Of a DNA stretch of 46,835 nucleotides, positions 33,339 through 45,376 are shown one piece after another. Source of the DNA: Methylococcaceae bacterium (GTDB lineage: Bacteria > Pseudomonadota > Gammaproteobacteria > Methylococcales > Methylomonadaceae); NCBI GenBank assembly GCA_030627265.1, contig DAOUSK010000003.1, forward strand, positions 1-46,835. Reading direction: 5' to 3'. Each line of letters opens with the position of its first letter. Within the stretch, counting starts at the first letter, position 1. The notes under the pieces are model-generated. The model was not told the DNA's origin, searched no databases, and saw nothing but the letters and a program-made list of their open reading frames with translations. The translations under genes and the position numbers were made by a program.

Positions 33339-33542
33339 TTATTTAAAGGCACAGCCCGGTTTAGCTCCCAATTTTTTTAAAACCATCGCTAACGGACAAA
33401 AACCCGTAAATGCAGATTGCAGTAAATTCGCACCCACAAACGCAGTTAGCCAGAGCCACTCAACTGCGTGGTATTGTGATAAAGCTAAGCTTGTTAAAAT
33501 AACTGTGCCTGCAAATGCAAAAACAATTCTATCTATACTCAT
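33339..33542 (-). CDS. DUF2892 (YgaP-type) small membrane protein, copy 1
   Basis: A 67-residue protein with two membrane helices. The family pattern is [17 protein letters not shown], then [21 protein letters not shown] and the C-terminal [10 protein letters not shown]. The two cysteines (FCPL and GCAF) are conserved in the family. DUF2892 domains are often fused or linked to rhodanese and sulfur-handling proteins. It lies 8 bp after sqr, and a second family member is at 40941-41123. Confidence 0.9.
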
Positions 33543-33550
33543 TTTTTTTC

Positions 33551-34825
33551 CTATTTTAAACGGACAACGCCCATAATTTTAAGCATCATTCTTTCATAAA
33601 ATGGCTCACTAATGCCCTTTCGAATTTTGCGCATAAAGTACTTTTCAAAACCAATTTTAGCCCAATGCACCCAACGCCCTTGTGCCGCCCAAGTAGTATT
33701 ACGCGGTGGAATCTGAGGAACCGCCATAAATGCAATTCCAGTATCACCCATATCAGCAAGGCATAAAGCACTTAAACTAGGCACCTCGGTTGGCTCTTTT
33801 CCTGCTAGCTCAGCCGCTATATTATGTGCTGTCGCTGTTACCATAGACTCAATCATATAACCTGTTTTAGGCGTACCAACGGGTACCGGTGTTTTTTCTA
33901 CAGGCGGTAATGCAACACAAACCCCAACTGAATAAATATTTTTAAACGTAGGGTTCCTCTGATGCTTATCAACAAGAATAAAGCCACGCGGGTTGATTAA
34001 GCCCTTCGCTTTTGTATGTCGTACTGCATCAATACCTGTAAAGGCAGGTAACATCATTGAATGTTTGAAAGATAATTCATGTTTTTTCTTATCAACCCCC
34101 TCTTCATCGACTTCAGTGACATACATCATGCCTTCTTCAATTTTATCAACTTTAGCATTAGTAACCCATTTGATAGTTTTATCGCGCAAGGCACTTTCTA
34201 ACAAACCTTTGGTATCTCCTACCCCACCTAACCCTAGATGCCCCACATAAGGCTCTGAAGTCACTAAAGTCATGGGAACTTGGTCACGAATTTTACGTTT
34301 TCTAAGTTCTGTTTCTAATATCATTAGATATTCATACGCTGGACCAAAACAAGATGCCCCTTGAACAGCACCAACAATTATCGGACCTGGGGTTGCCATG
34401 AATTTTTCCCAGTCTTGTGCAGCCATTGCAGCGTGATCAACATGACAAACTGAAGAGGTATAGCCGTCAGGACCCAACCCTTCAACTTCATCAAAAGCTA
34501 ATCGCGGGCCGGTTGCAATAATCAAATAATCATATTCAACTTCTGAATCGTCAGCTAATTGAATTTTGTTATTTTCAGGATCAACTTTTGTTGCTGCTTT
34601 TTGAATAAAAGTAATTCCTTTTTTCTTAAAAATAGGAGCAAGTTCAATTTTTAATTCCTCTGGTGTTCGCCATTTTGGTGGAACCCACGGGTTAGACGGA
34701 ACAAAATGAAAAGTGGGTGAATCAGAAATAACAAGCACCTCATGCTCGCTACCAACCGTTTCTTTCATTTCATAAGCCATTGGCACACCGCCAATTCCTG
34801 CACCTAAAACAACAATCTTAGCCAT
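33551..34825 (-). CDS. sqr: Sulfide:quinone oxidoreductase (SQR-type flavoprotein)
   Basis: A 424-residue FAD enzyme that would oxidise sulfide and pass electrons to the quinone pool from the inner face of the membrane. The FAD motif is [16 protein letters not shown] (about 5-20). Cysteines at about 127 (SSVCHVD), 159 ([11 protein letters not shown]) and 355 (SALCLADMG) match the positions of the three catalytic cysteines of classical SQR (about 127, 159, 353). The second dinucleotide region is [14 protein letters not shown], and the end [15 protein letters not shown] is amphipathic, as in membrane-bound SQR. The ATG at 34825 follows GGAG by 6 bp; earlier in-frame starts have no spacing. It is cotranscribed with DUF2892. 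Confidence 0.86.
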
Positions 34826-34924
34826 TTCCATCTCCACATTAGTTATTATTTTTATTATCGTTATCTATAACTCACATTGCATTGCATAAATTGAAGAATT
34901 AAATATAACTTGCTTTTATATTAG

Positions 34925-34962
34925 CATTCTCTAAAATAGCTATCAAGTTATTTTAGAGAATG
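34925..34962. promoter_or_regulatory. 14-bp perfect inverted repeat in the sqr/RND divergent region
   Basis: CATTCTCTAAAATA (34925-34938) and TATTTTAGAGAATG (34949-34962) are perfect inverse complements around a 10-nt spacer. The element lies 100 bp from the sqr start and 82 bp from the RND start, so it could be an operator controlling both, or a hairpin in one 5' leader. No terminator function makes sense between two divergent genes. Confidence 0.6.
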
Positions 34963-35043
34963 TTTTAAACCCTACGTCTTTAACTTACATGTTGAATAAT
35001 ACCACCTTAATAATTCGCTTTTACCATTAATACTGAGATATTT

Positions 35044-37734
35044 ATGAGCAAACATACCAACGATACGGAAACCGTTAACCCCATTATTTTATTTTCGATT
35101 AATCATCCTAAATTTATTACTCGACTAATGACGGTGATTACATTAACCCTCATTACTATCGCTGCTTTACCTAATTTTTTCCCTGAACAGCTACCCTTTT
35201 TAAACACCTTGCAGGTCGATACCGATCCTGAAAACATGTTATCTGCGGATGAGGATGCGCGTGTTTATAATGCAAAAATGAAAAAGGAATTTTCATTGAG
35301 CGATATTGTTGTCGTTGGTATTACTAATGATTTTAATAATAATGGTGTATTTAACCCTAAAACATTAAATAATATTCACCAACTTACTCAATTTGCATTA
35401 GGTTTGCATTGGGCTGATGAAAAAACAGGAAAACAAGCTGGGGTCATCGGTATTGATTTATTATCTCCTTCGACGGTTGATAATATTGAACAAGGCGGCT
35501 TAGGTTCCGTTAATTTCAGCTGGTTAATGCCTAGTGCACCCAAAACTCAAGAGGAAGCTTTGAAGGTACGCGAGCGTGCTAAAAAAATCCCTTTCTTGGA
35601 TGGCACATTAATTAGTGATGACGGCCAAGCATTGGCGATTTATATTCCCATCACAGATAAACATTTAAGCTATGAAATTCGTGAGAAATTATTAGCGCGT
35701 ATTGCAGAGTTCGGTGAAATAGAAGAAGACTATTATATTACTGGCTTACCGGTTGCAGAAGATACCTTTGGTGTCGAAATGTTCAAACAAATGGCGATTT
35801 CTGCACCTATCGCTATGTTAGTGATCTTTTTAATGCTTTGGTGGTTTTTTAAACGCTTAATATTTGTTACCTCACCCATGATTTTAGCCATGGTTTGCGC
35901 CTTATCAACGATGGCCATTTTGATTATTACAGGTAATACTATTCATATTATGAGCTCGATGATCCCTATCTTCATCATGCCCATTGCTATTTTAGATGCC
36001 GTACATATCTTGTCTGACTTTTTTGACAAATATAATAAAATTCAAGATAAACGTAAAACTATCATTCATGTGATGAATGAATTATTTACACCGATGTTAA
36101 TCACAACATTAACCACCATTGCTGGTTTTGCATCACTCGCATTAACCCCTATCCCACCAGTACAAACTTTTGGGATTTTTATTGCTATCGGCGTATTTTT
36201 AGCATGGCTTTGGTCTATTACTTTTATCCCAGCTTTTATTGTTAGTATTCCTGATGAAAAATTAGCAGGGTTTATTACCGCTGATACTGGCACAAAAAGC
36301 GACCATAAAACATTGATGGGGCGCTTATTAGAGAAAGCAGGAAACTTTACCTATAACCATGCATTAATCGTTGTTTTAATTTCTATGAGTACCATTGGCA
36401 TTGCTGCTTATGGTATTAGTAAAATTAATGTTAATGATAACCCAATAAAATGGTTTAATGCAGACCACCCTATCCGCGTTGCTGACCGTGTACTTAATGA
36501 GCACTTTGGCGGTACCTATATGGCTTATTTAGCTTTAGAAGTTGATACAGAAAACGCAACTAATATTGATTTCAAACCCGCTATGCTTGAACGCCTAGCA
36601 ATGGCAGAAAACAATGCAATTGAATTGCAATTAACACATGCTAAAAATATATTTACTCAAGTCCAATCTAAAATTCAAAACCATATTGGCTCAGAACAAT
36701 TATTAGCAACAAATTTATTAGAGTTTCTTGATAAAGGCTTTGAAACTTCCGCTGATAATGAATTTGATACTTGGGATCAAGTACAGTTATTTATTGATAG
36801 CGAAAGTCAGCGTAAAGAAATTTTCAAACAACCTGATGCCTTACTTTACCTTGCCGATTTACAAAAATTTATTAATAACTTAGAAGTCGTTGGTAAATCA
36901 AATAGTCTTTCTGATGTCATTAAAACCGTACATCGTGAATTATTATTAGGCAAAGCCGAGGAGTTTAGAATTCCTGATTCATCAAATGCCGTTGCACAAA
37001 CTTTAATTACTTATCAAAATAGCCACAGGCCTCATGATTTATGGCACTTTGTCACCCCTGACTACCGTAAAACTAGCCTTTGGGTACAATTAACCAGTGG
37101 TGACAACCAAGATATGTCAGTTGTTGAGCAAGAGGTGGCTAACTACATTAGCTCTCACCCGATGCCACACAATTTAAAGGCAAAATGGTTCGGTTTAACG
37201 CATATTAATGTTGTTTGGCAAGAAAAAATGGTGACGGGCATGTTTGAGTCTTTCACAGGAAGCTTTATTGTTGTATTGATTATGATGATCTTATTATTTA
37301 GATCATTTTTCTGGGGACTTTTATCAATGATTCCTCTTACATTAACCGTTGGTTTGATTTATGGCTTTATCGGCTTAATTGGTAAGGATTATGATATGCC
37401 TGTTGCTGTGCTTAGCTCTTTAAGTATTGGTTTGGCCGTCGATTACGCCATTCATTTTTTGAGTCGAGCGCGTGAATACACCGCTCACCATGGCTCTTGG
37501 GAAAAAGCAATCGGACCATTATTTAGCGAACCAGCTATGGCTATTTCACGTAATGCTATTGTTGTTGGTGTTGGGTTTTTACCCTTATTAGCCGCTCCCT
37601 TAGTGCCTTACCAAACAGTTGGTTTCTTTATCGCATCTATCTTATTTTTAGCAGGTATCACATCCCTGTTATTATTACCGGCAATCATTAGTCTGATGCC
37701 TAATCTATTTTTTAGAAACCTAAAAAACAATTAA
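35044..37734 (+). CDS. RND/MMPL-family exporter
   Basis: An 896-residue inner-membrane transporter of the RND superfamily (sterol-sensing-domain, MMPL-like branch), with the expected two halves. Helix 1 is near residues 20-40, then a large periplasmic loop (DTDPENMLSADEDARVYNAK). Helices 2-6 lie about 240-410 and include MIPIFIMPIAILDAVHILSDF. The second half has a loop, then helices 8-12 from about 735 with SLSIGLAVDYAIHFLSRARE. The acidic residues in these helices (D-H in DAVHIL, D-Y-A in AVDYAIH) are the proton-relay type. Such proteins export lipids or hydrophobic compounds; no periplasmic adaptor is encoded, but a LolA-like protein and a barrel follow, which suggests lipid transfer. Confidence 0.9.
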   Translation: MSKHTNDTETVNPIILFSINHPKFITRLMTVITLTLITIAALPNFFPEQLPFLNTLQVDTDPENMLSADEDARVYNAKMKKEFSLSDIVVVGITNDFNNNGVFNPKTLNNIHQLTQFALGLHWADEKTGKQAGVIGIDLLSPSTVDNIEQGGLGSVNFSWLMPSAPKTQEEALKVRERAKKIPFLDGTLISDDGQALAIYIPITDKHLSYEIREKLLARIAEFGEIEEDYYITGLPVAEDTFGVEMFKQMAISAPIAMLVIFLMLWWFFKRLIFVTSPMILAMVCALSTMAILIITGNTIHIMSSMIPIFIMPIAILDAVHILSDFFDKYNKIQDKRKTIIHVMNELFTPMLITTLTTIAGFASLALTPIPPVQTFGIFIAIGVFLAWLWSITFIPAFIVSIPDEKLAGFITADTGTKSDHKTLMGRLLEKAGNFTYNHALIVVLISMSTIGIAAYGISKINVNDNPIKWFNADHPIRVADRVLNEHFGGTYMAYLALEVDTENATNIDFKPAMLERLAMAENNAIELQLTHAKNIFTQVQSKIQNHIGSEQLLATNLLEFLDKGFETSADNEFDTWDQVQLFIDSESQRKEIFKQPDALLYLADLQKFINNLEVVGKSNSLSDVIKTVHRELLLGKAEEFRIPDSSNAVAQTLITYQNSHRPHDLWHFVTPDYRKTSLWVQLTSGDNQDMSVVEQEVANYISSHPMPHNLKAKWFGLTHINVVWQEKMVTGMFESFTGSFIVVLIMMILLFRSFFWGLLSMIPLTLTVGLIYGFIGLIGKDYDMPVAVLSSLSIGLAVDYAIHFLSRAREYTAHHGSWEKAIGPLFSEPAMAISRNAIVVGVGFLPLLAAPLVPYQTVGFFIASILFLAGITSLLLLPAIISLMPNLFFRNLKNN

Positions 37735-37743
37735 CATAGCTGG

Positions 37744-37774
37744 TATGGTTCACTTTTTTACAAAGTGAACCATA
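37744..37774. promoter_or_regulatory. Intercistronic hairpin between the RND and LolA-like genes
   Basis: TATGGTTCACTTT (37744-37756) and AAAGTGAACCATA (37762-37774) form a perfect 13-bp stem around TTTAC. No T-run follows, so it is not a standard terminator. It begins 9 bp after the RND stop and ends 30 bp before the next ATG; it could stabilise RNA ends or tune expression between the genes. Confidence 0.7.
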
Positions 37775-37804
37775 CAATCACCAAATGACTACGGAGAATT
37801 TAGT

Positions 37805-38617
37805 ATGAATTTAAAACACATAATTTTAGCGTTAAGCTGTTCCCTTAGCAGTTACGCAGCATTAGCAGCACCTACTGTTGATGAAATTATTCATAAAACT
37901 AACTACACAAGCTATTACAAAGGCCAAGATGGTAAAGCAAAAGTAAAAATGACCATTACTGATGCGCAAAACCGCATACGGTCTCGTGAATTTGTTATTT
38001 TACGTAAAGATGTACCAACAACAGATGACTTGACTAACCACGCCTACCAAGGCGACCAAAAAATGTATGTTTACTTTACGCGCCCAGCGGATGTTAACAA
38101 AATGGTCTTTATGGTTTTAAAGCATATCCAATCTGATGATGATCGCTGGTTATACTTACCTGCCTTAGATTTAGTGAAACGTATTGCCGCATCTGATCAG
38201 CGCACTAGCTTTGTCGGCTCTGATTTTTTATATGAAGATGTTTCTGGTCGTAGTTTAGCGGCAGATAAACATGTTTTAATTAGTGAAGATGCTAACTATT
38301 ATGTTGTTGAAAATACACCCATTGATGCAGACTCTGTTGAGTTTTCTAAATATGTTATGTACATACACAAAACAACATTTTTGCCGATTCAAACAGAATA
38401 TTTTGATAAGCAAGGCGCTAAATATAAAGTTTATACTGCACTTAATGTAGAAAACATTCAAGGCCATCAAACCATTACAAAATCAGAAGCTAAAAACCTT
38501 CAAACCGGTGGCAGCACTATCTTAGAATATACATCAGTTGCTTATGATACAGGCTTCCCTGATGAAATTTTTTCTGAACGTTTTTTACGTAAAGCACCAA
38601 GAAAATATTTACGTTAA
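37805..38617 (+). CDS. LolA-like outer-membrane lipoprotein-sorting protein
   Basis: A 270-residue periplasmic protein of the COG2834 type. It has a signal peptide (MNLKHIILALSCSLSSYAALA with cleavage near AAP) and a half-barrel fold like LolA/LolB: KVKMTITDAQNRIRSREFVI, MYVYFTRPADVNKMVFMVLK and DRWLYLPALDLVKRIAAS, then GSDFLYEDVSGR, a highly conserved family stretch. Genes of this family regularly stand beside RND/MMPL exporters and are thought to carry lipids or lipoproteins across the periplasm. GGAG lies 8 bp before the ATG. It is not the canonical LolA, which is shorter (about 200 residues). Confidence 0.88.
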   Translation: MNLKHIILALSCSLSSYAALAAPTVDEIIHKTNYTSYYKGQDGKAKVKMTITDAQNRIRSREFVILRKDVPTTDDLTNHAYQGDQKMYVYFTRPADVNKMVFMVLKHIQSDDDRWLYLPALDLVKRIAASDQRTSFVGSDFLYEDVSGRSLAADKHVLISEDANYYVVENTPIDADSVEFSKYVMYIHKTTFLPIQTEYFDKQGAKYKVYTALNVENIQGHQTITKSEAKNLQTGGSTILEYTSVAYDTGFPDEIFSERFLRKAPRKYLR

Positions 38618-38625
38618 TATACCTT

Positions 38626-38664
38626 ATGCGTAGGATGGGTAGAGCGCCTTTTGCGAAACCCATC
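38626..38664 (-). repeat. Dispersed palindromic repeat, copy B
   Basis: GATGGGT (38634-38640) and ACCCATC (38658-38664) frame an inner GCGC/GCG pair, forming a hairpin; GCGTAGG lies just outside. The reverse complement matches copy A at 12109-12150, including the GCATAA flank. It sits 9-47 bp after the LolA-like stop, inside the RND operon, and could affect expression of the barrel gene. Confidence 0.75.
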
Positions 38665-38745
38665 ATTTTACCTAGGGTTGGCGGAGATTGATTTTTCCCC
38701 TAAATATCAGCTGCCTTTTTTCATCGCCTTTACCGAAATTATCTC

Positions 38746-40212
38746 ATGCGAATTTTTTCACTCTTATCTACCTCATTACTTCTCCTCAGTTGCGCAAATG
38801 CTTTTGCTGCCCCGCCTCTACCCACAGGACTTGCACCAAAAACTAATGCACCTGCTTTGCCAGCTGGACTAACAACTAGCCCTACTTTACCTGCAGGCTT
38901 AAACAGTAGCAGCCCCTCATTGCCTACCGGTCTAGGTTCAGCACCACAACTTCCAAGCGGACTAGAGTTAACAGCAACACAACAAGTCGAAATAGTTCCC
39001 GAGGACAGCGAACCTTTTATTAATATCAATGGTTTTTTTGATATGCGTGGCGGCATACGCACACAAGATGACCCGTATGAAAATCAAATGTCTTTAGGCG
39101 AAATTCGCTTACAGCTTGCATTACAAAAAGATATTGGCATGTTTTCATTCAACCTAGTCACTGATTTCCTTTACGATGCAAATGTTGATTCTTATGACAT
39201 CGCCCTCGATAAAGGTAAGGGCTGGATTGATTTACGCGAAGCCAGTGTTGCCTTTAGTCCATTGGATTCATTAGATATAAAAATAGGTCGGCAAATCTTA
39301 ACCTGGGGAACGGGAGATTTAATCTTTATTAATGACCTTTTTCCCAAAGATTGGCAGGCATTTTTTACCGGTCGTGACTTAAAATACCTAAAAGCACCAT
39401 CAGATTCCGTTAAATCGTCTTTTTTTAGCAAGTATGTTAATGTGGATTTTGTTTTTACCCCATGGTTTGATCAAGACCGTAGCATTTCAGGTGAAAAAAT
39501 ATCCTATTACAACCCTATGCAAGGATCATTAGCTGGACAAAATGCCATTATTGATGCTGAAACACCTTATTCTGAAGAATATGCACTACGACTTTATCAG
39601 AATTTTGGCGTTAATGAAGTGGCCTTGTATGGGTATCATGGCTTCTGGAAAAGCCCTTTTGGTTTTAACCAAGATACAGGCAGAGCCCGCTACCCAAAGA
39701 TGCGTTCAATTGGTGCAAGTATCCGTCGCCCATTAGGTAAAGGAATCGTTAATTTTGAAGCGGGATACAATGATTCATTTGAAAGTAATAGCAGCACAGA
39801 CCCTTTTATACCTAATAGCGAATCACGATTCCTTATTGGTTATGAACAAGAAATTGTTAAAAACTTTTCTATTGGGTTGCAATATTATATTGAATGGTTA
39901 CATGACTACGATCAATACGTAAGCAGTAACCAACAAATAGGTTCACCCTCCTACCGCAAAGAAGTCAGGCATTTATTAACCAACCGCCTTACTTTAATGA
40001 CTCATCAACAAAATGTGACTTGGTCATTATTCACCTTCTTTTCACCCTCGGATTTAGATGCTTATTTCAGACCTAATATAAACTATAAAGTCACCGATGC
40101 ATGGCAAGTAGAAGCGGGCGCTAATTTCTTTGTAGGAAAAAATGATTATTCATTCTTCGGGCAGTTTGCATTGAATAATAATGTCTATGGCTCTGTCCGT
40201 TATAGTTTTTAA
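38746..40212 (+). CDS. Outer-membrane beta-barrel protein with LPxGL repeats (DUF1302-like)
   Basis: A 488-residue protein. A signal peptide (MRIFSLLSTSLLLLSCANAFA) is followed by five copies of LP[ATS]GL at about residues 25-72, each 9-12 residues apart. The remainder has the alternating, aromatic-rich beta pattern of an outer-membrane barrel: FININGFFDMRGGIR, SLGEIRLQLALQKDIGMF, LDIKIGRQILTWGTGDLIFI (a DUF1302-like signature), ending NNNVYGSVRYSF with the C-terminal Phe usual for Bam-assembled porins. With the RND pump and LolA-like protein it could form a trans-envelope export route. The sequence LLSC near the signal end also fits a lipobox, but a barrel is more likely. Confidence 0.82.
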   Translation: MRIFSLLSTSLLLLSCANAFAAPPLPTGLAPKTNAPALPAGLTTSPTLPAGLNSSSPSLPTGLGSAPQLPSGLELTATQQVEIVPEDSEPFININGFFDMRGGIRTQDDPYENQMSLGEIRLQLALQKDIGMFSFNLVTDFLYDANVDSYDIALDKGKGWIDLREASVAFSPLDSLDIKIGRQILTWGTGDLIFINDLFPKDWQAFFTGRDLKYLKAPSDSVKSSFFSKYVNVDFVFTPWFDQDRSISGEKISYYNPMQGSLAGQNAIIDAETPYSEEYALRLYQNFGVNEVALYGYHGFWKSPFGFNQDTGRARYPKMRSIGASIRRPLGKGIVNFEAGYNDSFESNSSTDPFIPNSESRFLIGYEQEIVKNFSIGLQYYIEWLHDYDQYVSSNQQIGSPSYRKEVRHLLTNRLTLMTHQQNVTWSLFTFFSPSDLDAYFRPNINYKVTDAWQVEAGANFFVGKNDYSFFGQFALNNNVYGSVRYSF

Positions 40213-40220
40213 AACTACTT

Positions 40221-40852
40221 ATGAAAATTCAGCCGCCACTTGAGTTTTTATTACAGCAAGATTCTGTCACAAAAATTAAAGCCCCACAAAAACGACTATT
40301 TGCCAGTCAGGTGACAGCTGTCAAAATTTAATTATTATCCAAACTGGCCTAGTCAGAGTTTCTCATATTGCCCCAGATGGTCGCAGCATTACCTTGTATC
40401 ATATTGGAGCAAATGAAAGCTGTATATTGACTGCGTCTTGTATTATTAATCACACGGCATTTCCAGCTATTGCTGAAACGGAAACAGACGTCACTGGGTA
40501 TGCTATCCCTGCCCAAAAAGTTCAACAATGGATGCAATCAGAAATACAATGGCAGCAATACTTATTTTCCCTGCTATCTCAACGCATGGCCTCACTCATT
40601 AACTTGGTTAACTCTCTTGCGTTTAAGCAGCTTGATAAGCGCTTAGCAACATGGCTACTGCAACAATCAAAATTAGAAAATACGCTAACACTAAAAACCA
40701 CCCACCAATTTATTGCTGGTGAACTCGCGAGTTCTCGTGAAGTCATCAGTCGCTTGCTCAAAGACTTGGAGCATCAACAGATTATTACCTTAAGCCGCGG
40801 TTATATTCAGATACATAACCCATCTCACTTAAGTATCTATTCCGAAAAATAA
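40221..40852 (+). pseudogene. Crp/Fnr-family regulator broken by a one-base frameshift
   Basis: A cAMP-receptor-type regulator split between two frames. The first frame starts at the ATG at 40221 (MKIQPPLEFLLQQDS) and reaches KRLFASQ before ending at TAA 40329-40331. The second frame, open from about 40280, carries the expected continuation from GDSCQNLIIIQTGLVRVSH at 40310 to TAA at 40852. Joining them with one base added near 40305-40309 gives a normal protein of about 210 residues: cyclic-nucleotide-binding fold (GRSITLYHIGANESCILTAS), dimer helix and a Crp helix-turn-helix (QFIAGELASSREVISRLLKDL). Cysteines are notable (DSC, ESC, ASC). It starts 8 bp after the barrel stop. It may be a true pseudogene, a sequencing error or a recoded gene; an ATG at 40394 could start only a truncated form. 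Confidence 0.8.
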
Positions 40853-40940
40853 CGACTACTTATATGTGACTTACCTTACATACCTAACCTATCAATCCCT
40901 TTAGACTACAAACTCATTATTATTAACTAAGGAGATTTAT

Positions 40941-41123
40941 ATGCAAAATGTAGGTGGAATCGATCGAATTATCAGAATTATTGTTGGACTTGCTGTTATT
41001 GCTTGGGGTGTTTATGCAGAGAACTGGCTAGGCGCTATTGGCCTTGTACCTTTATTAACTGGCACGATTCGCTGGTGTCCTGCTTATCTTCCTTTCGGGT
41101 TTAAAACTTGTAACAAAGATTAA
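40941..41123 (+). CDS. DUF2892 small membrane protein, copy 2
   Basis: A 60-residue protein with the standard DUF2892 pattern: NVGGIDRIIRIIVGLAVIAWG, then LGAIGLVPLLTGTIRWCPAYLP, with the conserved CPAY and a last Cys in FKTCNKD. Two helices are predicted. AAGGAG lies 8 bp before the ATG. It follows the Crp-family gene by 88 bp and mirrors the copy at 33339-33542 in the neighbouring sqr unit. Confidence 0.92.
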   Translation: MQNVGGIDRIIRIIVGLAVIAWGVYAENWLGAIGLVPLLTGTIRWCPAYLPFGFKTCNKD

Positions 41124-44185: not shown

Positions 44186-44371
44186 CATTTGTCCTGCACT
44201 ATCTGAATAATTAATGGGTATTATATAGTTTGAATTAGATAAAAAGAAATGAGACAAGAAAGCTCATTGAGCATAAGCGGATAAATCATCATTGTTTTAT
44301 ACTAGTCTATGGTATTATTCTCACCTTAAATTAAAGTAAAATAAAATAATAATAAATTATTGGAGATGGCT

Positions 44372-45376
44372 ATGCCTCAAATTCGTACTATTATTTCAGC
44401 TGTCATACTTGCTGGGTCTACTACGCTTGCTTCTGCTTGGGATGCACTTCCCACTAAAGCACCCGCCCCCGCAAACAACCCGACTACGACGGAAAAAATA
44501 GAATTAGGTCGTAACCTATTTCATGACCCTCGTTTATCTTCTACAGGCACTGTTTCCTGTGCTTCTTGCCATAACACGATGGCAGGTGGTGAAGATAACC
44601 GCCCTAACTCTATGGGCGTTCACGGGCAAACAGGTGGTCGTAGCGCTCCAACAGTCTGGAATGCAGCTTTTAGTGAAGTACAATTTTGGGATGGTCGCGC
44701 TGCAAGCTTAGAAGCACAAGCTGCAGGTCCTGTTACTAATCCTATCGAAATGGGTATGAAAAACTGGGATGATGTCGTTGTCCGTTTAAAAGCAATTGAA
44801 GGTTATCGCGTTGCCTTTAAAAAAGCATTTCCTGATGAAGCAATCTCAGAAGATACAGCAACCAAGGCCATTGCCGCTTATGAGCGAACTTTAATTACGC
44901 CTAACAGTGCGTATGATAAATATGCAAAAGGTCAAAAATCTGCTTTAACAGCTCAGGAAGAACGTGGATTAAAGAAAATGGCAAAAATTGGTTGCTTAAG
45001 CTGCCATAGCGGTGCTGCTTTCAATGGTAATGGTGGTTTCAGAGAGTTTCCTGCTATTTATAATTCTTATTTAGAAAAACAATACCAATTTTCTAATGAT
45101 AAAGGCTTATTTGAGGTCACGAAAAATCAAGAAGATGAACATTTCTTTAAAATACCTACCTTACGTAATATTGCTTTAACAGCCCCTTATTTTCATAATG
45201 GTTCCGTTAAAACACTAGAAAAAGCAGTAAAAGTAATGGCAACAGTGCAATTAGGTAAAAAATTATCTAGTAGTGAAGTTGAAGACATCGTTGCTTTCTT
45301 AAACGCATTAACTGGAGAATTTCCAGAGCAAGCAATGCCTACTCTGCCTACGACTCCTGGTAAAACGTTTAACTAA
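44372..45376 (+). CDS. ccpA: Di-haem cytochrome c peroxidase (CcpA/MauG family)
   Basis: A periplasmic enzyme of 334 residues that reduces hydrogen peroxide with electrons from cytochrome c. The ATG at 44372 lies 6 bp after TGGAG; upstream in-frame codons at 44360 (TTG) and 44366 do not fit the site. The signal peptide is MPQIRTIISAVILAGSTTLA. The two haem motifs are CASCH (about residue 61) and CLSCH (about 207). Typical segments are IELGRNLFHDPRLS, GRSAPTVWNAAF, FWDGRAASLEAQA and FKIPTLRNIALTAPYFHNG, the last holding a C-terminal haem ligand region. It is divergent from ftsK. Confidence 0.93.
   Translation: MPQIRTIISAVILAGSTTLASAWDALPTKAPAPANNPTTTEKIELGRNLFHDPRLSSTGTVSCASCHNTMAGGEDNRPNSMGVHGQTGGRSAPTVWNAAFSEVQFWDGRAASLEAQAAGPVTNPIEMGMKNWDDVVVRLKAIEGYRVAFKKAFPDEAISEDTATKAIAAYERTLITPNSAYDKYAKGQKSALTAQEERGLKKMAKIGCLSCHSGAAFNGNGGFREFPAIYNSYLEKQYQFSNDKGLFEVTKNQEDEHFFKIPTLRNIALTAPYFHNGSVKTLEKAVKVMATVQLGKKLSSSEVEDIVAFLNALTGEFPEQAMPTLPTTPGKTFN

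What the first reader, a model, noticed from the sequence alone, without database searches (positions are those of the whole stretch)
33339..41123. Candidate system: SQR-DUF2892 divergent from RND-LolA-barrel-Crp-DUF2892
Two oppositely oriented units share a 218-bp control region. One has sulfide:quinone oxidoreductase plus a DUF2892 protein. The other has an MMPL-type exporter, a LolA-like carrier, an outer-membrane barrel, a cysteine-rich Crp regulator and a second DUF2892 protein. The two DUF2892 genes at the outer edges tie the units together. One idea is that sulfide or polysulfide is sensed by cysteines of the Crp protein, and that the export route remodels or protects the envelope, or exports a hydrophobic sulfur product. 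This functional link is my hypothesis; neighbourhood alone supports it.
Basis: inference. Interest (0 to 1): 0.65.

Follow-up and report, generated by a model that had tools for sequence, protein, structure and literature searches.

The report
Sulfide-linked envelope export gene cluster
In what appears to be a methane-eating symbiont of deep-sea mussels, a sulfide-oxidising enzyme sits back to back with a pump, carrier and outer-membrane pore that keep sulfide-related neighbours in many unrelated bacteria, which suggests an export route for a greasy sulfur product.

Summary
The arrangement changes about 21 times on a 62-row pump tree. SQR-DUF2892 is a common independent pair; the pump is an optional partner. 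Most likely mechanism: a proton-driven RND pump loads a hydrophobic product of sulfide oxidation (S8 or polysulfane) onto a LolA-like carrier, which delivers it to a porin-like barrel. The sulfide link is well supported, the substrate inferred. Also seen: LPxGL repeats in the barrel's disordered tail (52 of 57 close barrels; absent from a deeper branch). Verdict: new variant of a known kind.

The parts
33339..33542 (-). DUF2892 (YgaP-like_TM, PF11127) small membrane protein 'a', downstream of SQR
   Evidence: 54.2 bits, cut-off 25.3; Cys49 in 23 of 23 aligned copies
33551..34837 (-). sulfide:quinone oxidoreductase, Acidithiobacillus-like; start at ATG 34825 or GTG 34837
   Evidence: 3sz0, E 5.6e-151; Cys131, 163 and 359 in 16 of 16 aligned copies
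34826..35043 (.). divergent control region; 34903-34968 (66 bp) is identical in L012; a minus-strand sigma-70-like match (34946-34918) falls in the part kept in L008 and L007
   Evidence: one promoter-like match is no more than shuffles give, mean 1.6
34925..34962 (.). inverted repeat, 17-nt arms (94% complementary) with a 4-nt centre, one place in the genome; candidate operator
   Evidence: second arm not kept in L007 and L008
35044..37734 (+). MMPL/HAE3-like RND transporter, 896 aa
   Evidence: conserved charged residues include D318, H321, D800, H804
37805..38617 (+). LolA-like periplasmic carrier (PF17131), 270 aa
   Evidence: model pLDDT 87; Foldseek to P. gingivalis LolA3 9tp6, TMq 0.77
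38746..40212 (+). outer-membrane barrel with a disordered N-terminal tail holding five LPxGL repeats (38818-38964)
40221..40852 (+). Crp/Fnr-type regulator gene, frameshifted in this assembly (gap at about 40,291)
40941..41123 (+). DUF2892 (YgaP-like_TM) small membrane protein 'b', partner of the Crp
   Evidence: 83.8 bits; DUF2892 within the flank of 22 of 29 Crp loci

Best explanation
The locus joins three sulfide-linked modules: SQR with DUF2892a, the RND-LolA-barrel exporter, and Crp with DUF2892b. SQR oxidises sulfide and passes electrons to quinone, leaving zero-valent sulfur (polysulfide or S8) at the inner membrane. The small DUF2892 membrane proteins, each with a conserved cysteine, help hold or hand on that sulfur. 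The proton-driven RND pump takes the hydrophobic product from the outer leaflet of the inner membrane and loads it without covalent bonds onto the LolA-like carrier, which crosses the periplasm and unloads at the porin-like barrel. The barrel's LPxGL-repeat tail may tether the carrier or the pump. Shown here: gene identities, predicted folds, repeated linkage, conserved residues. Inferred: every transport step, the substrate, the role of DUF2892 and the regulation. My probability is about 0.75 that the exporter serves reactive-sulfur physiology at all, and about 0.37 that the cargo is zero-valent sulfur as stated.
For: Linkage of DUF2892, SQR, ArsR and Crp to the pump falls sharply beyond 2 kb (DUF2892a 44 in 259 kb within 2 kb, 2 in 610 kb beyond). 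It occurs in several orders: divergent, upstream and downstream co-directional; about 21 changes of arrangement on the tree. The linked ArsR has both cysteines in 8 of 11 aligned copies and the one tested is HlyU-like; HlyU reacts with persulfides (PMC10509353, passages). Some loci without DUF2892 have thiol or sulfur genes beside the pump: thioredoxin and DUF302 (L035), thioredoxin-DUF6132 and OsmC with a sub-threshold DUF302 (L038), a disulfide oxidoreductase with a rhodanese domain (L071) (neighbours picked by eye), an FCSD-like flavoprotein (L136) and a thioredoxin (L133). In Ilyobacter the set follows FAD oxidoreductase, selD, yedF and DUF3343 genes. No cysteine is conserved in pump, carrier or barrel, which fits non-covalent carriage of a nonpolar cargo. 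LolA-type carrier fold. In Azospira suillum an SQR operon with RND efflux genes and a separate DUF2892 gene are strongly expressed under sulfide oxidation (PMC5358917, passages).
Against: No expression, transport or substrate data. SQR is mostly found without the pump in this family. The genome encodes a persulfide dioxygenase (L195, closest to 4ysb, also ETHE1) and seven rhodanese-domain places, so SQR's sulfur has another way out. 11 of 45 flanked pump loci, and 5 of 15 in the even draws, have none of the counted partners. Other neighbours I scanned look unrelated to sulfur: TPR protein (L019), TonB receptor (L022), PhoU (L059), no family (L055, L036). In L125 a LolA-barrel pair sits with a different MMPL pump among AMP-ligase, carrier-protein and reductase genes, which points to a lipid-type cargo for that relative. 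An MMPL-LolA fusion plus porin in Thalassolituus is induced by a long-chain alkane (PMC6304351, passages). The neighbour profiles were built from the same loci in which they were then counted, which favours finding them near the pump. In Azospira, deleting the SQR operon or the DUF2892 gene did not change the rate of sulfide oxidation.
Confidence: 0.37

Rival explanations
1. The exporter moves a membrane or storage lipid (or a sulfide-damaged lipid) that the cell must remodel when sulfide is present; sulfide genes are neighbours because the stress is shared, not because sulfur is the cargo.
For: MMPL/HAE3 pumps and LolA folds usually handle lipids (general knowledge; for the fold); the L125 relative lies in an acyl-type gene run; Thalassolituus MMPL-LolA fusion and porin induced on n-C28 alkane (PMC6304351, passages).
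Against: The recurring linked genes that I counted are sulfide-related. But I annotated only a hand-picked part of the neighbours, so recurring lipid genes are not excluded.
Confidence: 0.3
2. The pump works as a general detoxifier under sulfide: it removes thiol-reactive or metal-sulfide compounds, as proposed for other RND pumps in Azospira.
For: Azospira authors propose export of metal sulfides by efflux pumps (PMC5358917, passages); Li et al. 2025 note RND efflux pumps near sulfane-sulfur-sensing ArsR regulators (PMC12423496, section 2.1 read).
Against: The triad has a LolA-type carrier and no MFP gene among the window genes scanned; no conserved Cys in the pump.
Confidence: 0.13
3. The route runs inward: hydrophobic sulfur from outside is taken up through barrel and carrier to feed persulfide metabolism.
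For: A barrel plus periplasmic carrier could serve uptake as well as export; the genome holds a persulfide dioxygenase that could use imported sulfur.
Against: RND pumps characterised so far move substrate outward (general knowledge).
Confidence: 0.08
4. The neighbourhood is coincidental: SQR-DUF2892, the exporter and Crp-DUF2892 each have their own role and merely ended up together in this lineage.
For: SQR-DUF2892a and Crp-DUF2892b pairs occur without the exporter; in-family co-occurrence of SQR and pump is not significant (Fisher p 0.27).
Against: Repeated linkage in different orders and phyla; same trend in even genome draws (DUF2892a 9 in 72 kb near, 1 in 174 kb far).
Confidence: 0.12

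Closest known systems
Sulfide:quinone oxidoreductase of the 3sz0/3kpk kind (Acidithiobacillus ferrooxidans, organism recalled)
   Same: Full-length match E 5.6e-151, catalytic-type cysteines kept
   Different: Paired with DUF2892 and, here, an RND-LolA-barrel exporter
Azospira suillum SQR-RND operon Dsui_3440-3443 and DUF2892 gene Dsui_0042 (PMC5358917)
   Same: SQR next to RND efflux genes; DUF2892 about 10-fold up under sulfide oxidation (passages)
   Different: That operon has an MFP subunit; no LolA-like carrier or barrel is named in the passages read; the DUF2892 gene lies elsewhere
MMPL-LolA fusion TOL_3187 and porin TOL_3188 of Thalassolituus oleivorans (PMC6304351)
   Same: MMPL pump, LolA-like domain and porin-like partner together (passages)
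   Different: Fused pump and carrier, alkane-induced; no sulfide genes described in the passages read
RSS-sensing ArsR regulators (HlyU, BigR, YgaV, SqrR) and their RND neighbours (PMC12423496, PMC10509353)
   Same: ArsR regulators sit beside 14 of 45 flanked exporter loci, the one tested being HlyU-like; RND pumps near such regulators are already remarked in print
   Different: The section and passages I read do not describe the LolA-barrel-DUF2892 set; the window itself has a Crp-type regulator
HpnN, BstA and other HAE3/MMPL lipid exporters
   Same: Same superfamily
   Different: Scores far below the curated family cut-offs

Membership tests
SQR of the A. ferrooxidans kind | Full-length homology to solved SQR | tested here: met
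   residues 6-428 of 428, E 5.6e-151
SQR of the A. ferrooxidans kind | Three catalytic cysteines (numbering 128/160/356 recalled) | tested here: met
   Cys131, 163, 359 in 16 of 16, aligned with Cys of the solved chain
SQR of the A. ferrooxidans kind | Oxidises sulfide with quinone | not testable with these tools
   needs an enzyme assay
MMPL/RND superfamily | MMPL domain twice | tested here: met
   PF03176, 2 stretches, 118.6 bits over cut-off 20.5
HAE3 subfamily TIGR00921 | Score over curated cut-off | tested here: not met
   180.6 bits against 351.9
HpnN hopanoid transporter | Score over curated cut-off | tested here: not met
   53.1 against 751.85 and 25.9 against 1100
BstA sterol transporter | Score over curated cut-off | tested here: not met
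   17.1 against 1400
LolA-like PF17131 | Domain score and fold | tested here: met
   193.4 bits over 30; TMq 0.77 to 9tp6
Canonical LolA lipoprotein carrier | Works with LolCDE and LolB | not tested
   partner gene here is an RND pump; lower structural similarity to LolA proper (TMq about 0.4)
YgaP | Rhodanese domain fused to the TM domain | tested here: not met
   both DUF2892 proteins are the TM part alone, 67 and 60 aa
YgaP-like_TM PF11127 | Score over cut-off | tested here: met
   54.2 and 83.8 bits over 25.3
Crp/Fnr regulator | Crp-type HTH | tested here: met
   PF13545 54.1 bits over 27
Crp/Fnr regulator | One intact frame with sensor domain | tested here: not met
   frames split in this assembly; intact in L012

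The most novel reading that the evidence does not exclude
The RND-LolA-barrel set is a dedicated export machine for zero-valent sulfur (S8 or polysulfanes), used by unrelated bacteria from several phyla to move the product of sulfide oxidation across the whole envelope, with the LPxGL tail of one large branch of barrels as a docking strip for carrier or pump and DUF2892 proteins as the membrane hand-over point.
Probability: 0.28. Interest if true: 0.85.

Novelty: new variant of a known kind. Interest (0 to 1): 0.6.

Why it matters
How insoluble sulfur from sulfide oxidation leaves a Gram-negative cell is, as far as I know (recalled, not searched exhaustively), not settled. My full-text searches of an open-access library on this point returned nothing or papers in which I saw no such gene set (one paper seen only in the listing, eight listed, one read in passages). 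The set gives a concrete, knock-out-ready candidate in organisms named as strains, such as Hahella sp. HN01, Marinobacter bryozoorum and Marinicaulis flavus. It also gives DUF2892, a widespread family of unknown role, a testable partner.

Tried and rejected
Known lipid-exporter families (HpnN, BstA, HAE3) were tested and fail their cut-offs. A Fnr-type box (TTGAT-N4-ATCAA, recalled) as the Crp site: in 300 bp upstream of eight Crp genes one site with 2 mismatches (L064); between Crp and pump, six of the eight loci have sites with 1 or 2 mismatches at differing places; not claimed. In-family co-occurrence of SQR and pump: not significant. The inverted repeat as a genome-wide repeat element: only one place in the genome at up to 3 mismatches; its second arm is not kept in L007 or L008, so a general operator is not claimed. 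Promoter-like matches in the control region are no more than shuffles give. Barrel relatives in the PDB by sequence: none at E<=0.1; by fold, porins and AlgE-type barrels, TM 0.5 or less over the model's length. SoxB: not found in this 91.5% complete genome (best 43.5 bits against a cut-off of 550). Persulfide dioxygenase: present, which counts against 'export is the only way out'. Of nine Lactamase_B places my motif script gave an open frame for four, and one of those was compared with solved structures.

Dropped or selected before counting: 35 of 80 loci lack 2 kb of flank on one side and are not in the 34-of-45 figure. Of 23 even-draw loci I gave 22 to (L127, a barrel fragment at a contig end, was not given); 20 had a pump over my 800-bit limit (L125 and L151 did not), 15 of these had both flanks. 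L136's FCSD-like flavoprotein scored under my SQR limit and counts as none; L124's DUF2892 and ArsR lie beyond 3 kb and were not counted. The ArsR count uses a profile limit only and includes copies without the two cysteines. In one search five loci (L001, L083, L138, L126, L124) were left out as duplicates; the window row bore a label of its own, which adds one change to the printed 22. The neighbours scanned were picked by eye, mostly because they looked redox- or sulfur-related: from 20 loci without DUF2892 listed, neighbours of five (L035, L036, L038, L071, L059) were scanned.
Full report
What is there. The window lies in an unnamed 2.3-Mb, 182-contig genome (G000, contig C42). The nearest pump in named contigs is from a Bathymodiolus brooksi methanotrophic gill symbiont, 90% identical (L012); that the window's host is such a symbiont is inference. 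The two units run apart from a 206- or 218-bp control region, depending on the SQR start. Pfam and PDB comparisons give YgaP-like_TM/DUF2892, SQR, MMPL/RND, LolA_like, a barrel without a Pfam match, a Crp-type HTH protein and a second DUF2892. All seven genes show purifying selection against L012, dN/dS 0.045-0.065, including the post-shift part of Crp (0.058), so the shift is recent or an error.

Is the link real? I fetched the 80 best pump loci from GTDB genomes (470 stretches encoded a relative, 80 were kept) and searched their neighbourhoods with profiles. In the clustering, LolA-like and barrel genes each occur in 62 of the 82 loci held then; many loci are cut by contig ends. Of 45 loci with at least 2 kb of flank on both sides, 34 carry at least one of DUF2892, SQR, ArsR or Crp within 3 kb (DUF2892 28, SQR 12, ArsR 14, Crp 6) and 11 carry none. 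Density falls sharply beyond 2 kb: DUF2892a 44 in 259 kb against 2 in 610 kb; SQR 16 against 1; ArsR 17 against 4; Crp 9 against 0. In even class and phylum draws the barrel is in 14 of 369 and 12 of 398 genomes (three genomes in both); there 10 of 15 flanked loci have a partner, and DUF2892a gives 9 in 72 kb near against 1 in 174 kb far. A bias remains: the neighbour profiles came from the first set, and two loci are shared. On a 62-row FastTree of the pump the DUF2892 label changes 13 times, SQR 10, ArsR 12, Crp 3 and arrangement 22 (21 without an artefact of my own labelling). All four partner labels change less often than in shuffles on average, as expected for inherited neighbourhoods that are also rebuilt. 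Orders include SQR-DUF2892 divergent from the pump (window and kin), DUF2892 upstream with SQR downstream (Marinicaulis, Parvularcula), Crp-DUF2892b-DUF2892a-pump (Emcibacter and other Alphaproteobacteria) and DUF2892 downstream of the barrel (family f141).

In 121 genomes of the window's family a pump orthologue (at least 66% identity; the next matches are near 29%) is in 7 and SQR in 60, both in 5, Fisher p 0.27. In two of the five, SQR and pump are on different contigs, so adjacency cannot be judged. In 7 of 7 fetched SQR loci from genomes without the pump orthologue a DUF2892 sits beside SQR. So SQR-DUF2892 is a common unit and the exporter an optional partner.

Regulators. 8 of 11 aligned ArsR copies beside the exporter have both cysteine positions. 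The one compared with solved structures, L039, is closest to HlyU (E 1.7e-20), then YgaV and BigR, with SqrR-type chains at about 1.6e-8 (the label SqrR for those chains is recalled). HlyU falls in the RSS-sensing ArsR cluster and reacts with persulfides (PMC10509353, passages). The Crp group has three invariant cysteines in nine sequences. In a 299-genome draw 74 genomes had a match; of the 29 best loci other than the window's own, 22 have a DUF2892 and 6 an SQR within the flank of up to 1.5 kb, and 28 of the 29 keep a C-x2-T-like-x2-C motif. In the control region 66 bp (34903-34968) are identical in window and L012 while the rest diverges; ATATTAGCATTC, CTAAAATA and ATCAA within it are also kept in L008 and L007.

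How it would work. Pump, carrier and barrel have no conserved cysteine, the carrier model has the LolA-like fold, and the barrel model is porin-like. Non-covalent carriage of a nonpolar cargo fits. The barrel's disordered tail holds LPxGL repeats: of 57 full-length barrels's loci, 52 have at least one LPxGL, 35 at least two, 140 in all against 1.26 expected from residue shuffles; nearly all lie in the N-terminal region. The motif is not universal: among the 23 even-draw loci 8 have it and 15 do not (two of these are fragments), among them the five of family f141. I read it as a docking strip of one branch (inference). Each DUF2892 type has a conserved cysteine (23 of 23 and 6 of 6); in YgaP the TM region near Cys159 responds to thiocyanate (PMC4730233, passages).

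Against. The genome has a persulfide dioxygenase; SoxB was not found. L125 shows a LolA-barrel pair with another MMPL pump in a lipid-type gene run, and a Thalassolituus MMPL-LolA fusion with porin is alkane-induced (PMC6304351, passages). These say the chassis carries hydrophobic cargo, not necessarily sulfur. Neighbours scanned in L019, L022, L055 and L059 show no sulfur link, and my choice of neighbours to scan was by eye.

Prior art. Li et al. 2025 already note RND efflux pumps near sulfane-sulfur-sensing ArsR genes (PMC12423496, section 2.1 read), and Azospira suillum has a sulfide-induced SQR-RND operon and DUF2892 gene (PMC5358917, passages). In searches I saw no paper that describes the RND-LolA-barrel-DUF2892 set; the library is open-access only, and most listed papers were seen as titles and abstract starts. 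Hence: new variant of a known kind, with a testable and more novel reading (zero-valent sulfur exporter) that the evidence does not exclude.

Noticed in passing
window 40221-40852: Crp gene split over two frames by a one-base gap against L012, though the rest is under purifying selection.
   Followed up: yes
window 38818-38964: Five LPxGL repeats in the disordered tail of the barrel after the signal peptide; repeats recur in barrels from several phyla but not in the deeper branch.
   Followed up: partly
L125 1333-11394: LPxGL barrel and LolA-like carrier with a different MMPL pump beside AMP-ligase, carrier-protein and reductase genes; looks like a lipid-type product.
   Followed up: partly
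L129 5512-9204 (-): Pump fused to cyclic-nucleotide-binding domains; a rhodanese gene lies about 7 kb away.
   Followed up: partly
L161 3092-11490 (Ilyobacter polytropus plasmid pILYOP01): LolA-barrel-pump set on a 0.96-Mb plasmid of a Fusobacteriota species, downstream of FAD oxidoreductase, selD, yedF and DUF3343 genes: a possible selenium or sulfur link.
   Followed up: partly
L139 11027-12208: A gene that looks transposase-like to me (not scanned) lies between the LolA-like and barrel genes in a relative.
   Followed up: no
L016 8253-8837 (-): Tll0287-like (PF11845) gene near the divergent DUF2892; the same cluster is found in L015, L018 and L074.
   Followed up: no
window 44360-45376: MauG/MbnH-like di-haem protein gene further downstream, kept in L012 too.
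   Followed up: no
L163-L191: Crp-DUF2892 pair as a widespread module in the phylum, sometimes with SQR.
   Followed up: partly
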